DNA from: Candidatus Gastranaerophilales bacterium | GTDB taxonomy: Bacteria; Cyanobacteriota; Vampirovibrionia; Gastranaerophilales; Gastranaerophilaceae | DNA: 64,000 bases | Assembly (NCBI GenBank): GCA_944323155.1 | Contig: CALURL010000009.1 | Coordinates: forward strand, 1-64,000 | Direction of reading: 5' to 3' | Shown: one piece after another, positions 40,937 to 57,825 of the stretch | Position numbering within the stretch: position 1 is the first letter of the stretch | How the letters are laid out: each line of letters begins with the position of its first letter | The notes under the pieces: generated by a model | Seen by the model: only the letters and a program-made list of their open reading frames with translations | Told to the model about the DNA's origin: nothing | Database searches by the model: none | Translations under genes and position numbers: made by a program

Positions 40937-41683
40937 TTAACAATTTTTTATTAACTTCAATACTGCACTGTGCCTGTTTGTTGTGGCGTTTTCTTTTCTA
41001 TAGGAAAAGAACATATCATTATCACATACAGTACAATAAGGACAAACATCAATTTCTTCAACGCCTGCTTCCAGCAATTGCTGTTTATTAATGTTTTTCA
41101 AATCAACAAAAATTTCACCGTTTCGTATTTCAAAAAGCCCTGAAAAATCATTTACCGTGGCTTTTAATTTTTCCAAAACTTCTTGTCCTACATTATAGCA
41201 GCACATAGAAATTGCAGGCCCTATAACGGCTTGAATATCTTCAGGATTTGAGCCAAAATCCTTAACCATTTTTTCCACAGTAACTACAGCGATTTTACCT
41301 GCTGTACCGCGCCAGCCGGCATGAGATACTGCTCCGATATTTAGTTTTTTATCATAAAGAATTACAGGAGTGCAGTCAGCAAAGTTCAAAAAAATTGCGT
41401 TCTCAAAATTATCCAAAATCAATCCGTCAGTATCAGGATAATTTTTCTTGTCAGGGTTAACTTTTTCAACATTATTTGTATGCGTCTGCGATGGTGTTAT
41501 AAGCTTGTTTTCACTAATTTTCAGGTAATCACAGATAATCTTTTTATTTTCATTGACTGCTGTTTCATATTCAGCCTCTTTGGTTTTTATAAAGCTTTCC
41601 CGTGTTGTGAAAAAATGTTCAACTCCGCTTAATATATCACTTCTTAAAACTTTTTTACCGTTAATTTCATCAAAATAAAACAT
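40937..41683 (-). CDS. YfiH/laccase-domain purine nucleosidase-type protein
   Basis: A 248-residue protein of the Cu-oxidase_4/YfiH family. It shows SQTHTNNV (near residue 66), the cysteine in NFADCTPVI, and HAGWRGTAGKIA, which together bind a metal. Recent work assigns the family purine nucleoside phosphorylase and deaminase activity; older annotations say polyphenol oxidase or peptidoglycan editing. A TATAAT lies 6 bases before the ATG with no ribosome site, so it may be leaderless despite following another gene by 19 bases. Confidence 0.88.
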   Translation of the reverse strand: MFYFDEINGKKVLRSDILSGVEHFFTTRESFIKTKEAEYETAVNENKKIICDYLKISENKLITPSQTHTNNVEKVNPDKKNYPDTDGLILDNFENAIFLNFADCTPVILYDKKLNIGAVSHAGWRGTAGKIAVVTVEKMVKDFGSNPEDIQAVIGPAISMCCYNVGQEVLEKLKATVNDFSGLFEIRNGEIFVDLKNINKQQLLEAGVEEIDVCPYCTVCDNDMFFSYRKENATTNRHSAVLKLIKNC

Positions 41684-41702: not shown

Positions 41703-43685
41703 TTAACTTTTAATAATATCATTTTTAAGCAGGTCTTTGTTAACATGGTTTAATACATCATACTTGTATGTCTCATAACCCTTAATTTTTCCTTCATCAG
41801 AAAGTGCTTGAACTGTGTTTAAATTTTTAACAAGATTATGTTTCATCATTCTATGGTGTTTTATAAAATAAGAGAAAGAATCGCCGCCTTTTTCTTTATT
41901 ACATTCTTTGCACATAACAACAAGATTTTTCTTATTATCACTTCCGCCAAGAATAGATGCCTCTAGATGATCTTTCGTTGCAACAGAACCGCTGAATATA
42001 TTCATAAATATAACTTTCATTTTGTCATCAGCCGGATAGGAAGACATATCTTTATACAATAAACGCTGAGCTCTATACTTTTTATTTATATTAGCACGCA
42101 TTTTATAAAATAAATCATCTTTACCAAGTCCTTCCATCTTGCCTATAGTTTGAGATAAAAGCGCAACATAATCATTCATCGGAAACGCATTTTTACTATT
42201 TAATTTTATAAATCGCTCAGACTGTTTTATATATTCCTTAAAACAGTTTCTTGTCTGCTTGTGGTATTTGCCAAGTAATTTCGGAGAACTTAATTTGTTG
42301 TTATATGCTTCCAGAGTAACTTTAATGGACTTATTAAAATATGATTTAAGCGCCTTTAACATATCTTCCTGTGAAATCTTTGGATTTTCTTGAAGAAGTC
42401 TCTGGAATTCTTCAACTAAAGGTTTGTAAATATTTCTTACATATTCCATATGAGAGTTTACAAAATCATTCAATTCATGCATATCTTTTGTTTTAAAAAT
42501 CTCATCTTCGAGTGCAAGCCGCTGTTTATGAGTAATAGTTTTTTGACCGCAGCAGGCGCATGGAATATCTTCAACATTCACAAGCTCAAAATCAAAATTT
42601 TTAACTTCATCTACAAACATTTTACATTTCAGTTTAAATAAAGCGCCTTCTTCCCTAAATTTTCCCTGCTTTGCGAGATTTTTCACAAGACGATTAACCT
42701 CAACAGGATAATTAAGATTATTATAAAATTTACCTTCCAAAGCGGCATTGCTTATATCTTCAATATAATTATCAAAATTATTGATAATACTTTGATCCTG
42801 AAGGATTTCTGTAGGAAGATTTATACAATTTTCTTTACACTGGCGGCATTCTAAAATTTTATTATAATTTGCAGTATTACCTTCTTTAAGATTTTTTGAA
42901 ACATGATTAATCATTCCCTCTGATTGTCCGAAAAGATTTCTCAAAACAATTTCAAGACGCGACATATTATTACCTTTTGCAACATTGCTGTTTGTAAACA
43001 CAAAACAATACGAATTTGCATCACGAATTTTATTTTTTAATTTCTGATAAATTTCCCATTTATCTTTTGCTTCTAGATTATAAAGAGTTTCTGCCAGCAT
43101 ATACTTATATGATTTATAATTTGTGTCACCACGTTCAACCAATTTAAATAATTCAGACTTATATTTATAACAAATCTCTTTATCATGTTCAGAAAGCTTT
43201 TGTGACTTCATATATTCATTAATATCACTATTAGTTCTTTTCAAAACACCAAGATATCTCTTAATAGAACCTGCACTCAAAACATTCAAAAGATGTTCCA
43301 ATTTCAAACCAGGAACTTTCTGTAAAAAATCTTCGCTGTATTTTATAGCCGGTTTAAAAATTGGATTAATATTTTCTTCATGCTTTTTCAAAAAATTTAT
43401 AAAATCAGCAGGAGTTTTTATATTGTTTTTACCCTCTTCAACCAATTCCTCGAAATTTTCTTTATTAAGCATAATAGTGTTGCACATTGGACAGTGTATA
43501 CCACGGAGCGACATAAGCTGTTCTGTAAGATAATTATCCTGCATGCCTCTAAAATTTAAAGGGAAATATGATAAGCATGGCAACATAGTAGAATTTTGAG
43601 TCTGCTCAGGCTTTTCATGTTTAACCAAATTATTATGATAATTACTATTTATATTAAATGAGGGTAATATTTTTATGACTTGCAT
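41703..43685 (-). CDS. Tandemly duplicated split HNH-like protein
   Basis: A 660-residue protein built from two similar halves. Half A has CPMC (65-68), helical filler, H261, N275 and CRQC (280-283). Half B has CACC (376-379), D572-H573, N587 and CKEC (592-595). Both halves share a KP pair (111-112 and 421-422) and nearly equal CxxC spacing (215 and 216). The C-terminal unit (KDHLEAS, then NLVVMCKECNKEKGG) reads like an HNH/endonuclease VII type site. Half B keeps D-H and looks active; half A has N-H and may not be. An upstream LNFRG motif is at 43-47. Nuclease activity is an inference. Confidence 0.7.
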   Translation of the reverse strand: MQVIKILPSFNINSNYHNNLVKHEKPEQTQNSTMLPCLSYFPLNFRGMQDNYLTEQLMSLRGIHCPMCNTIMLNKENFEELVEEGKNNIKTPADFINFLKKHEENINPIFKPAIKYSEDFLQKVPGLKLEHLLNVLSAGSIKRYLGVLKRTNSDINEYMKSQKLSEHDKEICYKYKSELFKLVERGDTNYKSYKYMLAETLYNLEAKDKWEIYQKLKNKIRDANSYCFVFTNSNVAKGNNMSRLEIVLRNLFGQSEGMINHVSKNLKEGNTANYNKILECRQCKENCINLPTEILQDQSIINNFDNYIEDISNAALEGKFYNNLNYPVEVNRLVKNLAKQGKFREEGALFKLKCKMFVDEVKNFDFELVNVEDIPCACCGQKTITHKQRLALEDEIFKTKDMHELNDFVNSHMEYVRNIYKPLVEEFQRLLQENPKISQEDMLKALKSYFNKSIKVTLEAYNNKLSSPKLLGKYHKQTRNCFKEYIKQSERFIKLNSKNAFPMNDYVALLSQTIGKMEGLGKDDLFYKMRANINKKYRAQRLLYKDMSSYPADDKMKVIFMNIFSGSVATKDHLEASILGGSDNKKNLVVMCKECNKEKGGDSFSYFIKHHRMMKHNLVKNLNTVQALSDEGKIKGYETYKYDVLNHVNKDLLKNDIIKS

Positions 43686-43809: not shown

Positions 43810-44448
43810 ATGAAAGAAAGTTTACAAAAGTATTTGGTAGAATTTATCGGGACGTTATTTCTGGTATTAACAGCCGGATGTTCTATTTTCGGCAACGGGC
43901 AAACAATTCCTGCCATTGCAATCGGGCTAATATTAATGGTAATGGTTTATGCAGGCGGACAAATTTCAGGCGGACATTACAATCCTGCTGTTTCACTTGC
44001 AGCAGCAATAAGAGGAGCTCTTGGATGGCGTCATATAGCTTTCTACTTTATTGCACAAATTTTAGGCGGACTAATTGCTGTATGTGCGGTTAAATATGCT
44101 GTTGTTGTTCCTCCAATAGAAGCTATGCCTAATTTTAATATCCCTGCATTAATTCTTGGAGAATTTTTATTCACATTTGCACTGTGTTATGTTGTTTTGC
44201 TGACTGCAACATCAAAAGCTGTTGAAGGTAATTCATTCTACGGTCTTGCAATAGGTTCAACTGTTACCGCAGGAATATTTGCAGTAAGTTCTTTTTGCTT
44301 AGCAGCATTCAATCCTGCTGTTGCAACAGCGTTTTTTGCACTCGGTGTTATTAACCTTAAATCATGGTTAATTGTAATAGCAGCAGAACTTGTTGCAGGT
44401 GCACTGGCTGCACTGGTTTATAAATTCTTATCTAACGACAGAACATAG
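43810..44448 (+). CDS. Aquaporin / glycerol facilitator family channel
   Basis: A 212-residue MIP channel with six membrane helices. Both half-helix motifs are present: NPA in GGHYNPAVSLA (near residue 60) and NPA in AFNPAVATAFF (near 173). It would pass water or small solutes across the inner membrane. A GGAGAC ribosome site lies before the ATG. The short loops and no long insert favour the aquaporin branch over GlpF, but this is not certain. Confidence 0.92.
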   Translation: MKESLQKYLVEFIGTLFLVLTAGCSIFGNGQTIPAIAIGLILMVMVYAGGQISGGHYNPAVSLAAAIRGALGWRHIAFYFIAQILGGLIAVCAVKYAVVVPPIEAMPNFNIPALILGEFLFTFALCYVVLLTATSKAVEGNSFYGLAIGSTVTAGIFAVSSFCLAAFNPAVATAFFALGVINLKSWLIVIAAELVAGALAALVYKFLSNDRT

Positions 44449-53312: not shown

Positions 53313-55117
53313 TTATGAATTATCATTTCGCAGTTTTTGCAGTCGAATTCAAGCGGATATTTCTTGCCCTTATCATCAATCAGAAATAATTTTTTAGGCG
53401 AACCGCACATATCAAAAGCAAATTTCAAACAGTGTTTTGTCCGCATAAGCTCTATATATTTTTGGGTGCAAGAACTGCATTCTAAAGACATTTCACAAAC
53501 TTCGCACCCGCAGTTTTCGTAAAACTCTTTTGCTGTCTGATTATGAATATTCGCCTTGTAATCAAGTTTTTCTTTAGGGAAAAACGCATGCTGCAAAGTT
53601 TTTTGAACATCACGTTTATAATTTCTCAACCTTTCATCCATAAGTTCATCAAGCAATTTACGGCGGAGTTCGTTAACCACAGAAATCGGAATGAATGGTA
53701 AATCAGAACAAACACGAACTTTACGTGCATAAAAATCACTCTCACCAGTTTTTTCCATCTGTTTAATAAAGTTTTCTTTCATCTTATCGGGATTTTTCGG
53801 ACTTTCTGTAAAATCAACAGAAACATTTGCAGAATTTTTGTTGTCATCAATTGCCGTAATAATCCCGTCACGGTAGATAATTTCTACCCCGATACGGCGT
53901 TTAATCTTAGAATTTGACAACAGCTTTTCAAACGCCACATCCTGATTTCTAAAAATCTCAGTGCCTGTCTTAATTCCGTTCATCTTATTTGGAAAAACTT
54001 TTATAACTGCACCGTTTTTATCTGAACGATTTACAAGACAGCCTTCCAGATGCCCGCCGTTCATAAAACATAATCCGTCCTGATTATTCAGCTGGAGTTT
54101 TGACTTTATTTCAAAAAAATCTTTTCCAACTTTTGTAACTGTTCCGATTTTTTCTCCAATTGCCTTCGGGGTATCAAAGTTAAAACATTTTTCGCGTTTT
54201 TTCAGAAAGTATTCGGTAAAACCACGGTTAAAACTCTTTTTCACATCAGGTTCAAAATCTGCAAAAATCTTTCCTGATGAGGATTTTCTACCGCAATTGT
54301 CAAGAATATTTCTATAATATGCAACGACATTTCTTACATAATTTTCATCCTTTAAGCGACCTTCAATCTTAAATGATTTAACACCTGCTTTCACAAGATT
54401 TTCAATCTGTTTTGAGGCGTTAAAATCCTTTAAGCTCAAAAGGTGTTTGTCTTTTGCAATAATGTTCCCGTTTTCGTCAATAAGTGTATATTTCTTGCGG
54501 CAAGCCTGTGCGCATTCGCCCCTGTTTGCGGAACGTCCGCCGATATACTGGCTCATATAGCATTGACCGCTGTATGAAACACACAACGCTCCATGTATAA
54601 ATGTTTCCACCTCAATTGCATTTTCTTTGTCGTCTATGGAAGAAACAGCAGAACAAATTTTCTGTATCTGCTCAAGCGATAATTCTCTTGCAAGAATTAT
54701 TCTTGAAACCCCGACATTTTGAAAAAATTCCGCTTTCTCCAGAGTCCTAATATCGCACTGAGTGCTTGCATGAATAGGTATTGGAGGAAGTTCACCGCGA
54801 ATTGCAAGTTCAAGAATTCCCATATCCTGAACAATTATTGCGTCTACTCCAATTTCATACAATTTCCAAATCAAATCTTTTGCCTGCAAAAGCTCGTCAT
54901 CTGTCAAAATTGTATTTATTGTCACATGAACTTTGACATAAAACTTATGAGCATACTCAACAACTTCTTTTATATCCTCTAAAAAATTCCCAACAGCCTG
55001 ACGCGCCCCAAATTTTACAGCACCGATATAAACAGCATCACAGCCGCTTTCTATAGCAGCAATTGCAGTTTTTTTATCTCTTGCAGGAGCTAAAAGTTCT
55101 AATTTTCTTGTTACCAT
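53309..55117 (-). CDS. Peptidase U32 family protein
   Basis: A 602-residue protein. The start at 55117 (MVTRKLELLAPARDKK) is preferred over the longer open frame because the family begins ELLAPA. The U32 core has the cysteine motif CYMSQYIGGRSANRGECAQA then CRKKY, which binds a Fe-S cluster in homologues acting as tRNA or rRNA hydroxylases (TrhP/RlhA). A C-terminal region adds more cysteines (CGCEVCEMSLECSSC). RNA hydroxylation is more likely than proteolysis (family knowledge). Confidence 0.85.
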   Translation of the reverse strand: MVTRKLELLAPARDKKTAIAAIESGCDAVYIGAVKFGARQAVGNFLEDIKEVVEYAHKFYVKVHVTINTILTDDELLQAKDLIWKLYEIGVDAIIVQDMGILELAIRGELPPIPIHASTQCDIRTLEKAEFFQNVGVSRIILARELSLEQIQKICSAVSSIDDKENAIEVETFIHGALCVSYSGQCYMSQYIGGRSANRGECAQACRKKYTLIDENGNIIAKDKHLLSLKDFNASKQIENLVKAGVKSFKIEGRLKDENYVRNVVAYYRNILDNCGRKSSSGKIFADFEPDVKKSFNRGFTEYFLKKREKCFNFDTPKAIGEKIGTVTKVGKDFFEIKSKLQLNNQDGLCFMNGGHLEGCLVNRSDKNGAVIKVFPNKMNGIKTGTEIFRNQDVAFEKLLSNSKIKRRIGVEIIYRDGIITAIDDNKNSANVSVDFTESPKNPDKMKENFIKQMEKTGESDFYARKVRVCSDLPFIPISVVNELRRKLLDELMDERLRNYKRDVQKTLQHAFFPKEKLDYKANIHNQTAKEFYENCGCEVCEMSLECSSCTQKYIELMRTKHCLKFAFDMCGSPKKLFLIDDKGKKYPLEFDCKNCEMIIHN

Positions 55118-55201
55118 ATGTAAAATTATAATACAAATCAGGCAATTTTGAATTCTTTTAGGTTTAATATTAACAAATACAAAATAGTGAAAGGGAAAAA
55201 T

Positions 55202-55570
55202 ATGCAAGTAAGTTCGGTCGTATTCAAGGCAAGTTTACCGCAAACTCAAACACAAAATCAAACTCAGCAAACCCAAGCAGCCAAAACAGACAATAAACAA
55301 GTTCAGACAAATTCTGCCTCTAAAAAGACTGAAATTGATAGTAAAAAATCCAATGGCAACATCTTTAAAGAACTCGGAATCTCAGAACCTCCGCCGATTA
55401 CAATAGGAATTACAAGCGCATTTGTATGGACAGGACTCGGAATGCTTATTGATAAGGGCATGTCTAAAATCCTTAAATATCAGTTTAACCCCAAAATGTC
55501 ATTCAAGATGAATGCAATTTTCGGACTTGTTATGGGTGCTTTTGATTTCTATAAAGCGAAAAAGGGTTAA
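55202..55570 (+). CDS. Small membrane protein with N-terminal F-K-A motif (paired gene 1)
   Basis: A 122-residue protein. An AAAGGGA site precedes the ATG at 55202; the frame is open further up without a site. It starts MQVSSVVFKASLPQ, has a Gln/Thr/Lys-rich linker to about residue 60, then two hydrophobic segments (ITIGITSAFVWTGLGMLI and NAIFGLVMGAFDFY). The last 55 residues resemble the next gene's product: G-x-x-x-A-x-x-W-x-G-x-G, D, KY, S, N, GA-x-x-F. No known family. Confidence 0.7.
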   Translation: MQVSSVVFKASLPQTQTQNQTQQTQAAKTDNKQVQTNSASKKTEIDSKKSNGNIFKELGISEPPPITIGITSAFVWTGLGMLIDKGMSKILKYQFNPKMSFKMNAIFGLVMGAFDFYKAKKG

Positions 55571-55637
55571 AATAAAATTTTTTTTGTTGTAAGATAAATT
55601 GCGTTAGCCAAAATACATTTACTTAATACTAAAAACT

Positions 55638-55955
55638 ATGATAAACGCAGTTAATTTTACTTCTACAAATACACAATACAAAACAAAAAAAGACCAAAGC
55701 CCAATGCAAGGCAGCATTAAGCCTGTAAAGCCTCTGGTAAAACCTGTTTCCCCGTTAAAATCAGGACTAAGCACTACAGCAGCCTGGTTCGGATTTGGAG
55801 TTGTGCTTGACAGAGTAACAACTTTTGCAGGGAAATATATTAAAACAAGCCCGCTAAAAACTTCTATTATTACAAATGGAGTTATTGCACTTGGTGCCGG
55901 AGCTTATACTTTTATAAAAGAAAATTCTACAAAGAACAAAAAAGCCTCTGTATAA
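55638..55955 (+). CDS. Small membrane protein with N-terminal F-T-S motif (paired gene 2)
   Basis: A 105-residue protein starting MINAVNFTSTNTQYKTKK, then a basic Pro-rich linker and two hydrophobic segments (LSTTAAWFGFGVVLD and TNGVIALGAGAYTFI). It is a diverged paralogue of the preceding gene, 67 bases upstream. No ribosome site is clear. The stop lies inside a terminator hairpin. Confidence 0.68.
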   Translation: MINAVNFTSTNTQYKTKKDQSPMQGSIKPVKPLVKPVSPLKSGLSTTAAWFGFGVVLDRVTTFAGKYIKTSPLKTSIITNGVIALGAGAYTFIKENSTKNKKASV

Positions 55956-55974
55956 CACAGAGGCTTTTTAATAT
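55939..55974. terminator. Bidirectional terminator
   Basis: AAAAAGCCTCTGT pairs with ACAGAGGCTTTTT around ATAAC, with T runs on both strands. It overlaps the last codons of the 105-residue gene and serves the convergent Fe-ADH. Confidence 0.9.
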
Positions 55975-55989
55975 TTTTATTGTGGAGTT

Positions 55990-57198
55990 TTATAGAGGTC
56001 TCAATGAATCTCTATAAATAGCTTCCACAACATCACGTCCGTTTCCTGACGGTGCAATTGCTAAAAGTCCTGCAAGAGACGGTGTTGTATAAACTAAATC
56101 TACAAGTTTTTCAACATCTTCTTCTTTAAAACCTTCATCTAGAAGTTTTTCAGGAACACCAACTGATTTTAACCATTCTTGAACACCTTTTGCAGCCTTT
56201 TCAGTATCAGAAGCATCAGGTTTCAAGCCTGGAACAATCGGTGAAAGAATTTCAGCCAAAACGTTAGGTCTGTCTTTATAAATTGTTTTAATAACAGCAG
56301 GTAATAAAATTGCTAAGCCTAATCCATGTGACAAATCAGGTTTTACAGCACTCAACGGATGTTCAAGTGCGTGTGTATAATGCAATAAGCCGTTATCAAA
56401 ACTTACACCACCCATCATCGCAGCGTATGCAAGGAAATATCTTGCTTCCAAATCATCAGGATTTTCAAGAGCTTTTGGCAAATATTTTGCAACAAGCTCA
56501 ATAACCTGTTTTGCTAATGTAATTGAATACGGAGAAGCAACAGTTGAAGTTGCAGCTTCTACAACGTGGTTAACAGCATCAATTGAAACATATCTTGTTT
56601 GTTTTGGAGACAATTTTGTCATCAATTGAGGATCGTCAATTGCGTACATCGGATAAATACAATCGTAAGCAATTGCCGGTTTAAAGTTCTTTTCAAGATT
56701 TGTTACAACAGCAAATCTGTTTGTTTCAGTTCCTGTTCCGTGAGTCAAGTTAATTGAAACAATCGGTGCTGCTTTTTCCGGTGAAAATTTAAATTCATAA
56801 ATATCATCCGCATTTTTGTCAGGGTATTCAAGTAAGATAGCAACTGATTTTCCTGCATCGGTTGGTGAACCACCGCCGATTGAAATAACTGCTTTTGCGC
56901 CGAAATCTCTTGCAAGTTTTGTTGCATCATCAACATGGTGAGTTGTCGGATTTGGGGTTACCTGATCGAAGTTAACGTAGCCTATTCCGTTATCTTTCAG
57001 TGCTTTTTCTACATAATCCCATGCACCTGTTGCTTTGTAAGCGTTTCTGCCTGACATTACGATTACTTTGTCAATACCTTTTGATTTTAAATCTTTAGCG
57101 ATGTCATCTATTTTTTTGATAGCGCCTACGCCAAAATAAACTGTTGTACGTGTGCGAATTTCTTTAACGTCGTTAATGTTAATATCTTTTTCCCACAT
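55990..57198 (-). CDS. Iron-containing alcohol dehydrogenase
   Basis: A 402-residue group III alcohol dehydrogenase. The start at 57198 has an AAAGGAGAG site; the frame is open to 57264 without one. The NAD motif is ISIGGGSPTDAGKS. Metal ligands lie in SIDAVNHVVE and in HYTHALEHPLSA with a later SHGLGLA. It oxidises alcohols or reduces aldehydes during fermentation. It stands alone. Confidence 0.92.
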   Translation of the reverse strand: MWEKDININDVKEIRTRTTVYFGVGAIKKIDDIAKDLKSKGIDKVIVMSGRNAYKATGAWDYVEKALKDNGIGYVNFDQVTPNPTTHHVDDATKLARDFGAKAVISIGGGSPTDAGKSVAILLEYPDKNADDIYEFKFSPEKAAPIVSINLTHGTGTETNRFAVVTNLEKNFKPAIAYDCIYPMYAIDDPQLMTKLSPKQTRYVSIDAVNHVVEAATSTVASPYSITLAKQVIELVAKYLPKALENPDDLEARYFLAYAAMMGGVSFDNGLLHYTHALEHPLSAVKPDLSHGLGLAILLPAVIKTIYKDRPNVLAEILSPIVPGLKPDASDTEKAAKGVQEWLKSVGVPEKLLDEGFKEEDVEKLVDLVYTTPSLAGLLAIAPSGNGRDVVEAIYRDSLRPL

Positions 57199-57319
57199 GC
57201 TATGCTCTCCTTTCTTTAAAAACACTGATAACATTATTAAATAAAAAAATTTTGTTTGCAACAAATATTCACAATAACAATACAGGATAAATTTAAGGAG
57301 AGGAGTTAAATCAAATAAT

Positions 57320-57529
57320 TTATCTTACTTTTTTAAATTCTATTTCGTAGCCGAGAACACCTGCAAGAAATTGGACTTCATCGTATTTCATAGAATCTCT
57401 GTTTAATTTTTGTGAAATACTATATTGAGATATTTTTTTATTTGAAGCTTTACTTGCCATGTCTGCAAGCTGCTTAATTGTCTTTTTTTCTTCTAATAAT
57501 AATTTTCGTAAATCTTTATTCGCACCCAT
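57320..57529 (-). CDS. Small HTH-like protein
   Basis: A 69-residue basic protein starting MGANKDLRKLLLEEKKTIKQ. The helix pattern IKQLADMASKASNKKISQYSISQKLNRDS resembles a stretched XRE HTH with an insert between the two DNA helices. It may be a regulator; it is divergent from the next small gene. Confidence 0.62.
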   Translation of the reverse strand: MGANKDLRKLLLEEKKTIKQLADMASKASNKKISQYSISQKLNRDSMKYDEVQFLAGVLGYEIEFKKVR

Positions 57530-57651
57530 AGTATCAATTATATAATTTTTAGATTATTATTGACAAATTAAAATTATTTTAGTATTATTTAAATTGTTTA
57601 TAATCTATTTAAACTAAAAACAATTTACACTTATTAAGAAAGGTTAACTTA

Positions 57652-57825
57652 ATGGACGATAAAGAAAAAATGAGAATTGTTCAAGACAAAACTTTCTATA
57701 TCCAAGCCATTAATAAAGTTCTATATGACGCTATTATGTATGGAGATTTAAGCAGAGACTGTGATTACATATCGCTGCTTGAAATCCAAAATAAATATAT
57801 TAATGCTATTACAGAACTGTTTTAA
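57652..57825 (+). CDS. Small hypothetical protein, 57 residues
   Basis: A short frame starting [16 protein letters not shown] with an AGAAAGG ribosome site 11 bases upstream. It is helical and acidic and ends ITELF. Its 3' end overlaps the convergent UDP-xylose synthase gene by 17 bases. It is divergent from the HTH-like gene at 57320. No family recognised. Confidence 0.55.

What the first reader, a model, noticed from the sequence alone, without database searches (positions are those of the whole stretch)
41703..43685. 660-residue protein made of two copies of a split HNH-like module
Reading the protein shows two parallel halves. C65-x2-C68 and C376-x2-C379 open each half; K111-P112 and K421-P422 lie 43 and 42 residues later; CxxC pairs close each half at 280-283 and 592-595, with opening-to-closing distances of 215 and 216. 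Before the closing pair, N260-H261 with N275 matches D572-H573 with N587 at the same offsets (19 and 5 residues before the cysteine). That is the D-H...N...CxxC order of HNH sites, but with the zinc half-sites separated by about 215 residues of helical sequence. Half A appears to have lost the Asp. The protein also carries a LNFRG motif upstream of half A. I do not know a described family with this build.
Basis: partly seen in the sequence, partly recalled or inferred. Interest (0 to 1): 0.75.

Follow-up and report, generated by a model that had tools for sequence, protein, structure and literature searches.

The report
Gut-bacterial tandem split-HNH nuclease family
This gene encodes a predicted DNA-cutting enzyme made of two copies of an HNH nuclease unit, each with a ~180-residue helical domain wedged into its zinc site, the first copy catalytically dead and the second intact; it belongs to a fast-evolving, apparently undescribed family found in nearly every genome sampled from one family of gut bacteria.

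Summary
The gene lies on the minus strand (41703-43685, 660 aa). Its halves are homologous: profile-profile E=1e-35; blastp within the protein 1.7e-8. Each half is a treble-clef HNH unit whose CPxCG zinc knuckle is separated from the beta-hairpin/CxxC-helix by about 180 helical residues. AlphaFold2 folds half B confidently (pLDDT 93, pTM 0.89); no PDB structure matches the whole, only the HNH core. Half B keeps D/E-H-N-CxxC-N-K/R; half A keeps four Cys and Asn but has lost the catalytic Asp/His across the family. Single-module versions are numerous, including four more family genes in this genome. The full-length module was found only in Gastranaerophilales, in almost every genome of this family. 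The double gene arose once (quick tree) and sits in a conserved place (aquaporin/PgeF) in 16 loci, yet is 26% identical against 61-80% for its neighbours, with dN/dS well below 1. Best reading: a chromosomal, conflict-type HNH nuclease with one pseudo-nuclease half. Substrate and biological role are unproven. New variant of a known kind.

The parts
41703..43685 (-). 660-aa double split-HNH protein (stop included)
43542..43685 (-). residues 1-48, disordered N-terminal tail (pLDDT < 50)
43545..43559 (-). LNFRG (residues 43-47), member of an N-terminal xFxG motif seen in 29 of 38 double proteins (loosened to G/A in the last place)
42651..43523 (-). half A, residues 55-345: pseudo-nuclease module
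43482..43493 (-). C65-P-M-C68, opening zinc knuckle of half A
   Evidence: 38/38 conserved
42927..43463 (-). helical insert of half A (residues 75-253)
   Evidence: AlphaFold2 secondary structure
42903..42908 (-). N260-H261, degenerate active-site position of half A (Asp lost; His in 2/15 half-A sequences)
42837..42848 (-). C280-R-Q-C283, closing zinc half-site of half A
   Evidence: 38/38 conserved
41706..42590 (-). half B, residues 366-660: predicted active module; pLDDT 93.3, pTM 0.89
42549..42560 (-). C376-A-C-C379, opening zinc knuckle of half B
   Evidence: 38/38 conserved
41991..42530 (-). helical insert of half B (residues 386-565), lying in the loop between zinc knuckle and beta-hairpin
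41856..41981 (-). HNH core of half B (residues 569-610): Pfam HNH_5/HNH, IscB-type HNH
41967..41972 (-). D572-H573, predicted catalytic His and its acidic neighbour (H in 30/38 doubles, 63/63 singles)
41901..41912 (-). C592-K-E-C595, closing zinc half-site at the helix start, followed by N596 and K599
40937..41683 (-). PgeF-like (Cu-oxidase_4) gene, 19 bases downstream on the same strand; syntenic partner in 16 loci
43810..44448 (+). aquaporin (MIP) gene, divergent; syntenic partner

Best explanation
A chromosomal HNH (His-Me finger, treble-clef) endonuclease. In each module the CPxCG zinc knuckle comes first, then about 180 residues of helical bundle, then the beta-hairpin that carries the catalytic His and the helix that carries the second Cys pair; one zinc is held by the two distant pairs. 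Half B is the catalytic module: D572-H573 and N587 bind the catalytic metal and activate water to cut or nick nucleic acid. Half A is a fused, catalytically dead copy that keeps its zinc fold, so the protein is an internal pseudo-dimer with one active site, the dead half most likely helping to grip or select the substrate. The family is inherited vertically and evolves fast, which best fits a role in conflict (against invading DNA or as an antagonistic effector) rather than housekeeping. Shown by computation: homology of halves, conserved site, dead half A, confident fold of half B, synteny, lineage restriction. Inferred: nuclease activity, zinc geometry, pseudo-dimer role, conflict role (the last at about 0.5).
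For: Halves homologous, E=1e-35. HNH profiles hit half B at 569-610; the family profile hits AceCas9 HNH at E=8e-8 and the G. metallireducens HNH nickase 4h9d at 1e-6. Catalytic His in 63/63 single modules and 14/15 half B, but 2/15 half A. AlphaFold2 half B pLDDT 93.3, pTM 0.89, strand-strand-helix at 568-599; local HNH superpositions 0.8-1.7 A over 34-40 residues. Knuckle-loop-hairpin-helix is the treble-clef order and HNH nucleases are treble clefs (PMC4999995). Both Cys pairs decay together in one sub-clade. dN/dS of close pairs well below 1, so functional, with dN several-fold that of most syntenic neighbours. A, B and single modules separate on the tree as one fusion predicts.
Against: One clade of double proteins (about 7 of 38) has lost the catalytic residues in half B too, so at least there the function is not cleavage. 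The joint loss of zinc pairs is essentially one lineage, not many independent events. No defence, immunity or secretion gene was recognised beside the double gene, so the conflict role rests on evolutionary rate, copy number and lineage restriction alone.
Confidence: 0.72

Rival explanations
1. The proteins are mainly structural or regulatory nucleic-acid binders that descend from HNH nucleases; catalysis is dispensable and the zinc-helical scaffold is the point.
For: All eight Cys are invariant in 38/38 doubles while a clade of about 7 lost the half-B catalytic residues; half A is dead in most of the family.
Against: Catalytic His is kept in 63/63 single modules and 30/38 half B, stronger than almost any other non-Cys position; even singles that lost zinc keep E-H and N.
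Confidence: 0.15
2. Secreted or injected antibacterial or host-directed nuclease effector, with the disordered N-terminus and xFxG motif as the address label.
For: Shared MKI...xFxG N-terminus in most family members and in some unrelated proteins including Ski2-like helicases; fast evolution; gut lineage.
Against: No immunity gene recognised beside the double gene; tagged helicases and a DHH phosphoesterase look intracellular; the motif's excess over background is modest (21 seen, about 10 expected).
Confidence: 0.2
3. Selfish homing or mobile HNH endonuclease.
For: HNH nucleases are often homing enzymes; single-module copies occur in tandem and in several copies per genome.
Against: Same chromosomal place in 16 loci, other sub-clades each with their own fixed place; relatives in no plasmid, phage or viral contig beyond the generic HNH core.
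Confidence: 0.04
4. Highly decayed IscB/Cas9 relative that lost RuvC and kept HNH.
For: Best profile matches are IscB and Cas9 HNH domains; Foldseek local hits to Cas9 HNH.
Against: Similarity is confined to the HNH core and the following helices, no RuvC or bridge helix match; scores far below NCBIfam cut-offs (30.8 vs 175 bits).
Confidence: 0.04

Closest known systems
Pfam HNH (PF01844) / HNH_5 (PF14279)
   Same: D/E-H ... GG ... N ... CxxCN core with beta-beta-alpha metal fold
   Different: Matches start at about profile position 13, because the first CxxC lies about 195 residues upstream of the catalytic His; for this protein just below the gathering scores (26.7 vs 27.5 and 20.8 vs 21.4 bits), above it for several relatives
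HNH domains of AceCas9 (8d2k), IscB and Cas9d
   Same: Zinc-type HNH core and following helix region over about 85 residues, E=8e-8; AceCas9 has its first CxxC about a dozen residues before its DH
   Different: No RuvC or bridge helix here; no helical insert in the zinc loop of the Cas9 domain
Geobacter metallireducens HNH nickase (4h9d)
   Same: HNH core, profile E=1e-6, 1.7 A over 34 residues
   Different: 112-aa compact single domain without insert or duplication
Treble-clef zinc finger fold group (PMC4999995)
   Same: CPxCG knuckle, loop, beta-hairpin, helix
   Different: Here the knuckle-to-hairpin loop is replaced by an all-helical domain of about 180 residues

Membership tests
HNH (His-Me finger) endonucleases | Catalytic His in beta-hairpin with conserved Asn and acidic neighbour | tested here: met
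   Half B and single modules; half A does not meet it
HNH (His-Me finger) endonucleases | beta-beta-alpha metal fold | tested here: met
   AlphaFold2 and local Foldseek superposition
HNH (His-Me finger) endonucleases | Metal-dependent nucleic-acid cleavage | not testable with these tools
   needs biochemistry
Zinc-type HNH (treble clef) | Two Cys pairs, knuckle CPxCG and helix-start CxxC, holding one zinc | tested here: inconclusive
   All four Cys of each module invariant in 38 doubles; confident single fold pTM 0.89; joint decay in one clade; distances not measured
IscB/Cas9 | RuvC nuclease domain and bridge helix | tested here: not met
   No such match in Pfam or NCBIfam; only the HNH part aligns
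Homing endonucleases | Mobile, variable insertion place | tested here: not met
   Conserved synteny in 16 loci
Known anti-phage defence proteins | Match to a PADLOC model | tested here: not met
   No hit for this protein; only weak partial hits for relatives

The most novel reading that the evidence does not exclude
Gastranaerophilales use a lineage-specific set of nucleic-acid enzymes (split-HNH nucleases, Ski2-like helicases, DHH phosphoesterases) that share a disordered N-terminal MKI...xFxG address and together form an unrecognised nucleic-acid-processing, defence or secretion pathway, of which this double-HNH protein is one member.
Probability: 0.12. Interest if true: 0.8.

Novelty: new variant of a known kind. 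Interest (0 to 1): 0.52.

Why it matters
It indicates that the small HNH/treble-clef zinc site tolerates a helical domain of about 180 residues between its two zinc half-sites and can be duplicated into an active/dead pair, and it reveals a nuclease family present, usually in several copies, in nearly every sampled genome of a poorly cultured gut lineage. Short-motif annotation can miss it: for this protein the Pfam HNH hits fall just below the curated cut-off. Because the gene is kept in place while its protein changes several times faster than its neighbours, it is a good candidate for an arms-race gene in a group whose interactions are little known.

Tried and rejected
Mobile or phage origin: two viral-contig scans, phage and plasmid tblastn gave only the generic HNH core or nothing. 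Known defence system: PADLOC no hit. K-P pairs as a repeat feature: not conserved. Wider taxonomic spread: the 382/386 phylum hits turned out, in the 11 genomes outside the order that I checked, to be the 45-50-residue HNH core, so they are not members. Zinc co-loss as independent statistical proof: Fisher p=9e-5 but the rows that lost both pairs are one clade and two counted rows are gene fragments, so it was downgraded. Global fold match in PDB or the viral library: none with E<=1e-3. A mixed 32-sequence profile was too diverse for collection scans. Literature search for Gastranaerophilales plus HNH endonuclease: no paper in the held library; that library lacks most subscription journals. 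The careful tree did not finish; the tree cited is the quick one.

Full report
What is there. The gene is on the minus strand, 41703-43685, 660 residues, ATG start. Every motif position in the finding is correct. Splitting the protein before each opening CxxC and comparing the halves gives blastp E=1.7e-8 within this protein; comparing 15-sequence profiles of the two halves gives hhalign probability 99.9, E=1e-35 over 290 columns. The duplication is therefore real.

What each half is. Pfam HNH_5 (E=5e-6) and HNH (4e-4), NCBIfam IscB (2e-7, HNH part only) and several PHROG HNH families hit residues 569-610 and a little beyond. In this protein and in relatives the Pfam matches mostly begin at about profile position 13, after the place of the first CxxC. 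A profile of 38 double proteins finds the HNH domains of AceCas9 (E=8e-8) and the G. metallireducens HNH nickase (1e-6) in the PDB. The AceCas9 hit is instructive: its first CxxCG stands about a dozen residues before its DH, while here the same kind of pair stands about 195 residues before. Treble-clef zinc fingers, to which HNH nucleases belong, are ordered CPxCG knuckle, loop, beta-hairpin, helix (PMC4999995). The helical insert thus sits in the knuckle-to-hairpin loop.

Structure. AlphaFold2 on the full protein with 37 homologues: mean pLDDT 84, pTM 0.55, residues 1-48 disordered, both halves helical with strand-strand-helix at 256-285 and 568-599. Half B alone: pLDDT 93.3, pTM 0.89. Foldseek finds no global match in the PDB or the viral library, but HNH cores superpose locally at 0.8-1.7 A over 34-40 residues. 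I could not read coordinates, so the meeting of the two Cys pairs is inferred, not measured. Supporting it, one sub-clade of single modules has lost both pairs, and nearby rows have lost the closing pair only; these are about one or two events on the tree, so the simple Fisher value overstates the case.

Active and dead halves. Across 63 single modules, 15 A halves and 15 B halves, the catalytic His is present in 63, 2 and 14, while the Cys and the Asn are kept in the A halves (Cys 15/15, Asn 14/15). Among 38 double proteins all eight Cys are invariant; the half-B His is present in 30, and one clade of about 7 has lost the half-B catalytic residues. The protein of the window has an intact half B.

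Family and distribution. Single-module versions (about 320-790 aa) exist and are numerous, often in tandem. This genome holds four more family genes: three in tandem after tsaB on contig 7 and one on contig 5. A scan of one genome per 84,980 species with the double-protein profile returned 44 loci, most titled Candidatus Gastranaerophilales and the rest unnamed, Melainabacteria/Cyanobacteria or probably mislabelled assemblies. Of 386 genomes of the phylum, all but one in the window's own family match; outside the order the matches checked shrink to the 45-50-residue HNH core. No relative beyond the generic core was found in viral contigs, phages or plasmids. On a quick tree all single modules form one side and the A halves form one clade, as a single fusion event predicts.

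Evolution. In 16 loci the gene stands beside a PgeF gene, in most of them with an aquaporin gene on the other side and further shared neighbours. Median pairwise identity there is 26% for this protein against 61-80% for the neighbours. For closely related pairs dN/dS is well below 1 (for example dN 0.17, dS 0.87 in L096/L102) but dN is several times that of the neighbours (0.00-0.09 in that pair). Elsewhere one neighbour class (cluster 8) evolves as fast or faster. The gene is therefore functional, vertically inherited and fast evolving.

Function. The best-supported molecular reading is a metal-dependent nuclease with one active and one pseudo-active module. The physiological role is open; rate, lineage restriction and copy number point to conflict, without a recognised partner gene beside the double gene. 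A hint from relatives: single-module genes with long C-terminal extensions stand next to a Ski2-like (DSHCT) helicase in four genomes (G058, G023, G004, G040), and some of those helicases carry the same N-terminal xFxG motif.

Verdict. It remains an HNH nuclease at heart, so it is a new variant of a known kind.

Noticed in passing
L070:329-3034 (G058:C14); also G023:C11, G004:C14, G040:C3: Ski2-like DSHCT helicase (about 900 aa), distinct from the ~770-aa copy in nearly every genome, adjacent to long single-module split-HNH genes in four genomes; some copies carry an N-terminal xFxG motif.
   Followed up: partly
own genome: L118:13365, L124:7681, L125:3149, L128:11345, L132:2348, L164:12010, L167:2434, L170:17941, L170:1754: Unrelated proteins with a polar, probably disordered N-terminus ending in a [ILVTP]-[NSHTQ]-F-x-G motif like LNFRG here; 21 matches in N-termini against about 10 expected. 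Possible lineage-specific address or docking label.
   Followed up: partly
G000:C7 about 53965-57751 (L047:5966-9752): Three tandem single-module split-HNH genes after tsaE/tsaB; the middle one (518 aa) has a longer insert and a C-x2-D closing pair.
   Followed up: partly
L003/L072/L073/L077/L080/L081/L083/L097: A clade of double proteins with all eight Cys but apparently no catalytic residues in either half: a complete pseudo-nuclease.
   Followed up: partly
L066:5238-6521 (G020:C37): DHH/DHHA1 phosphoesterase with an N-terminal VSFGG motif, on the same strand about 1 kb upstream of a single-module split-HNH gene.
   Followed up: no
L104 (titled Clostridiaceae) and L100 (titled Firmicutes): Public assemblies with other titles carry the Gastranaerophilales gene and synteny; probably mislabelled.
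   Followed up: no
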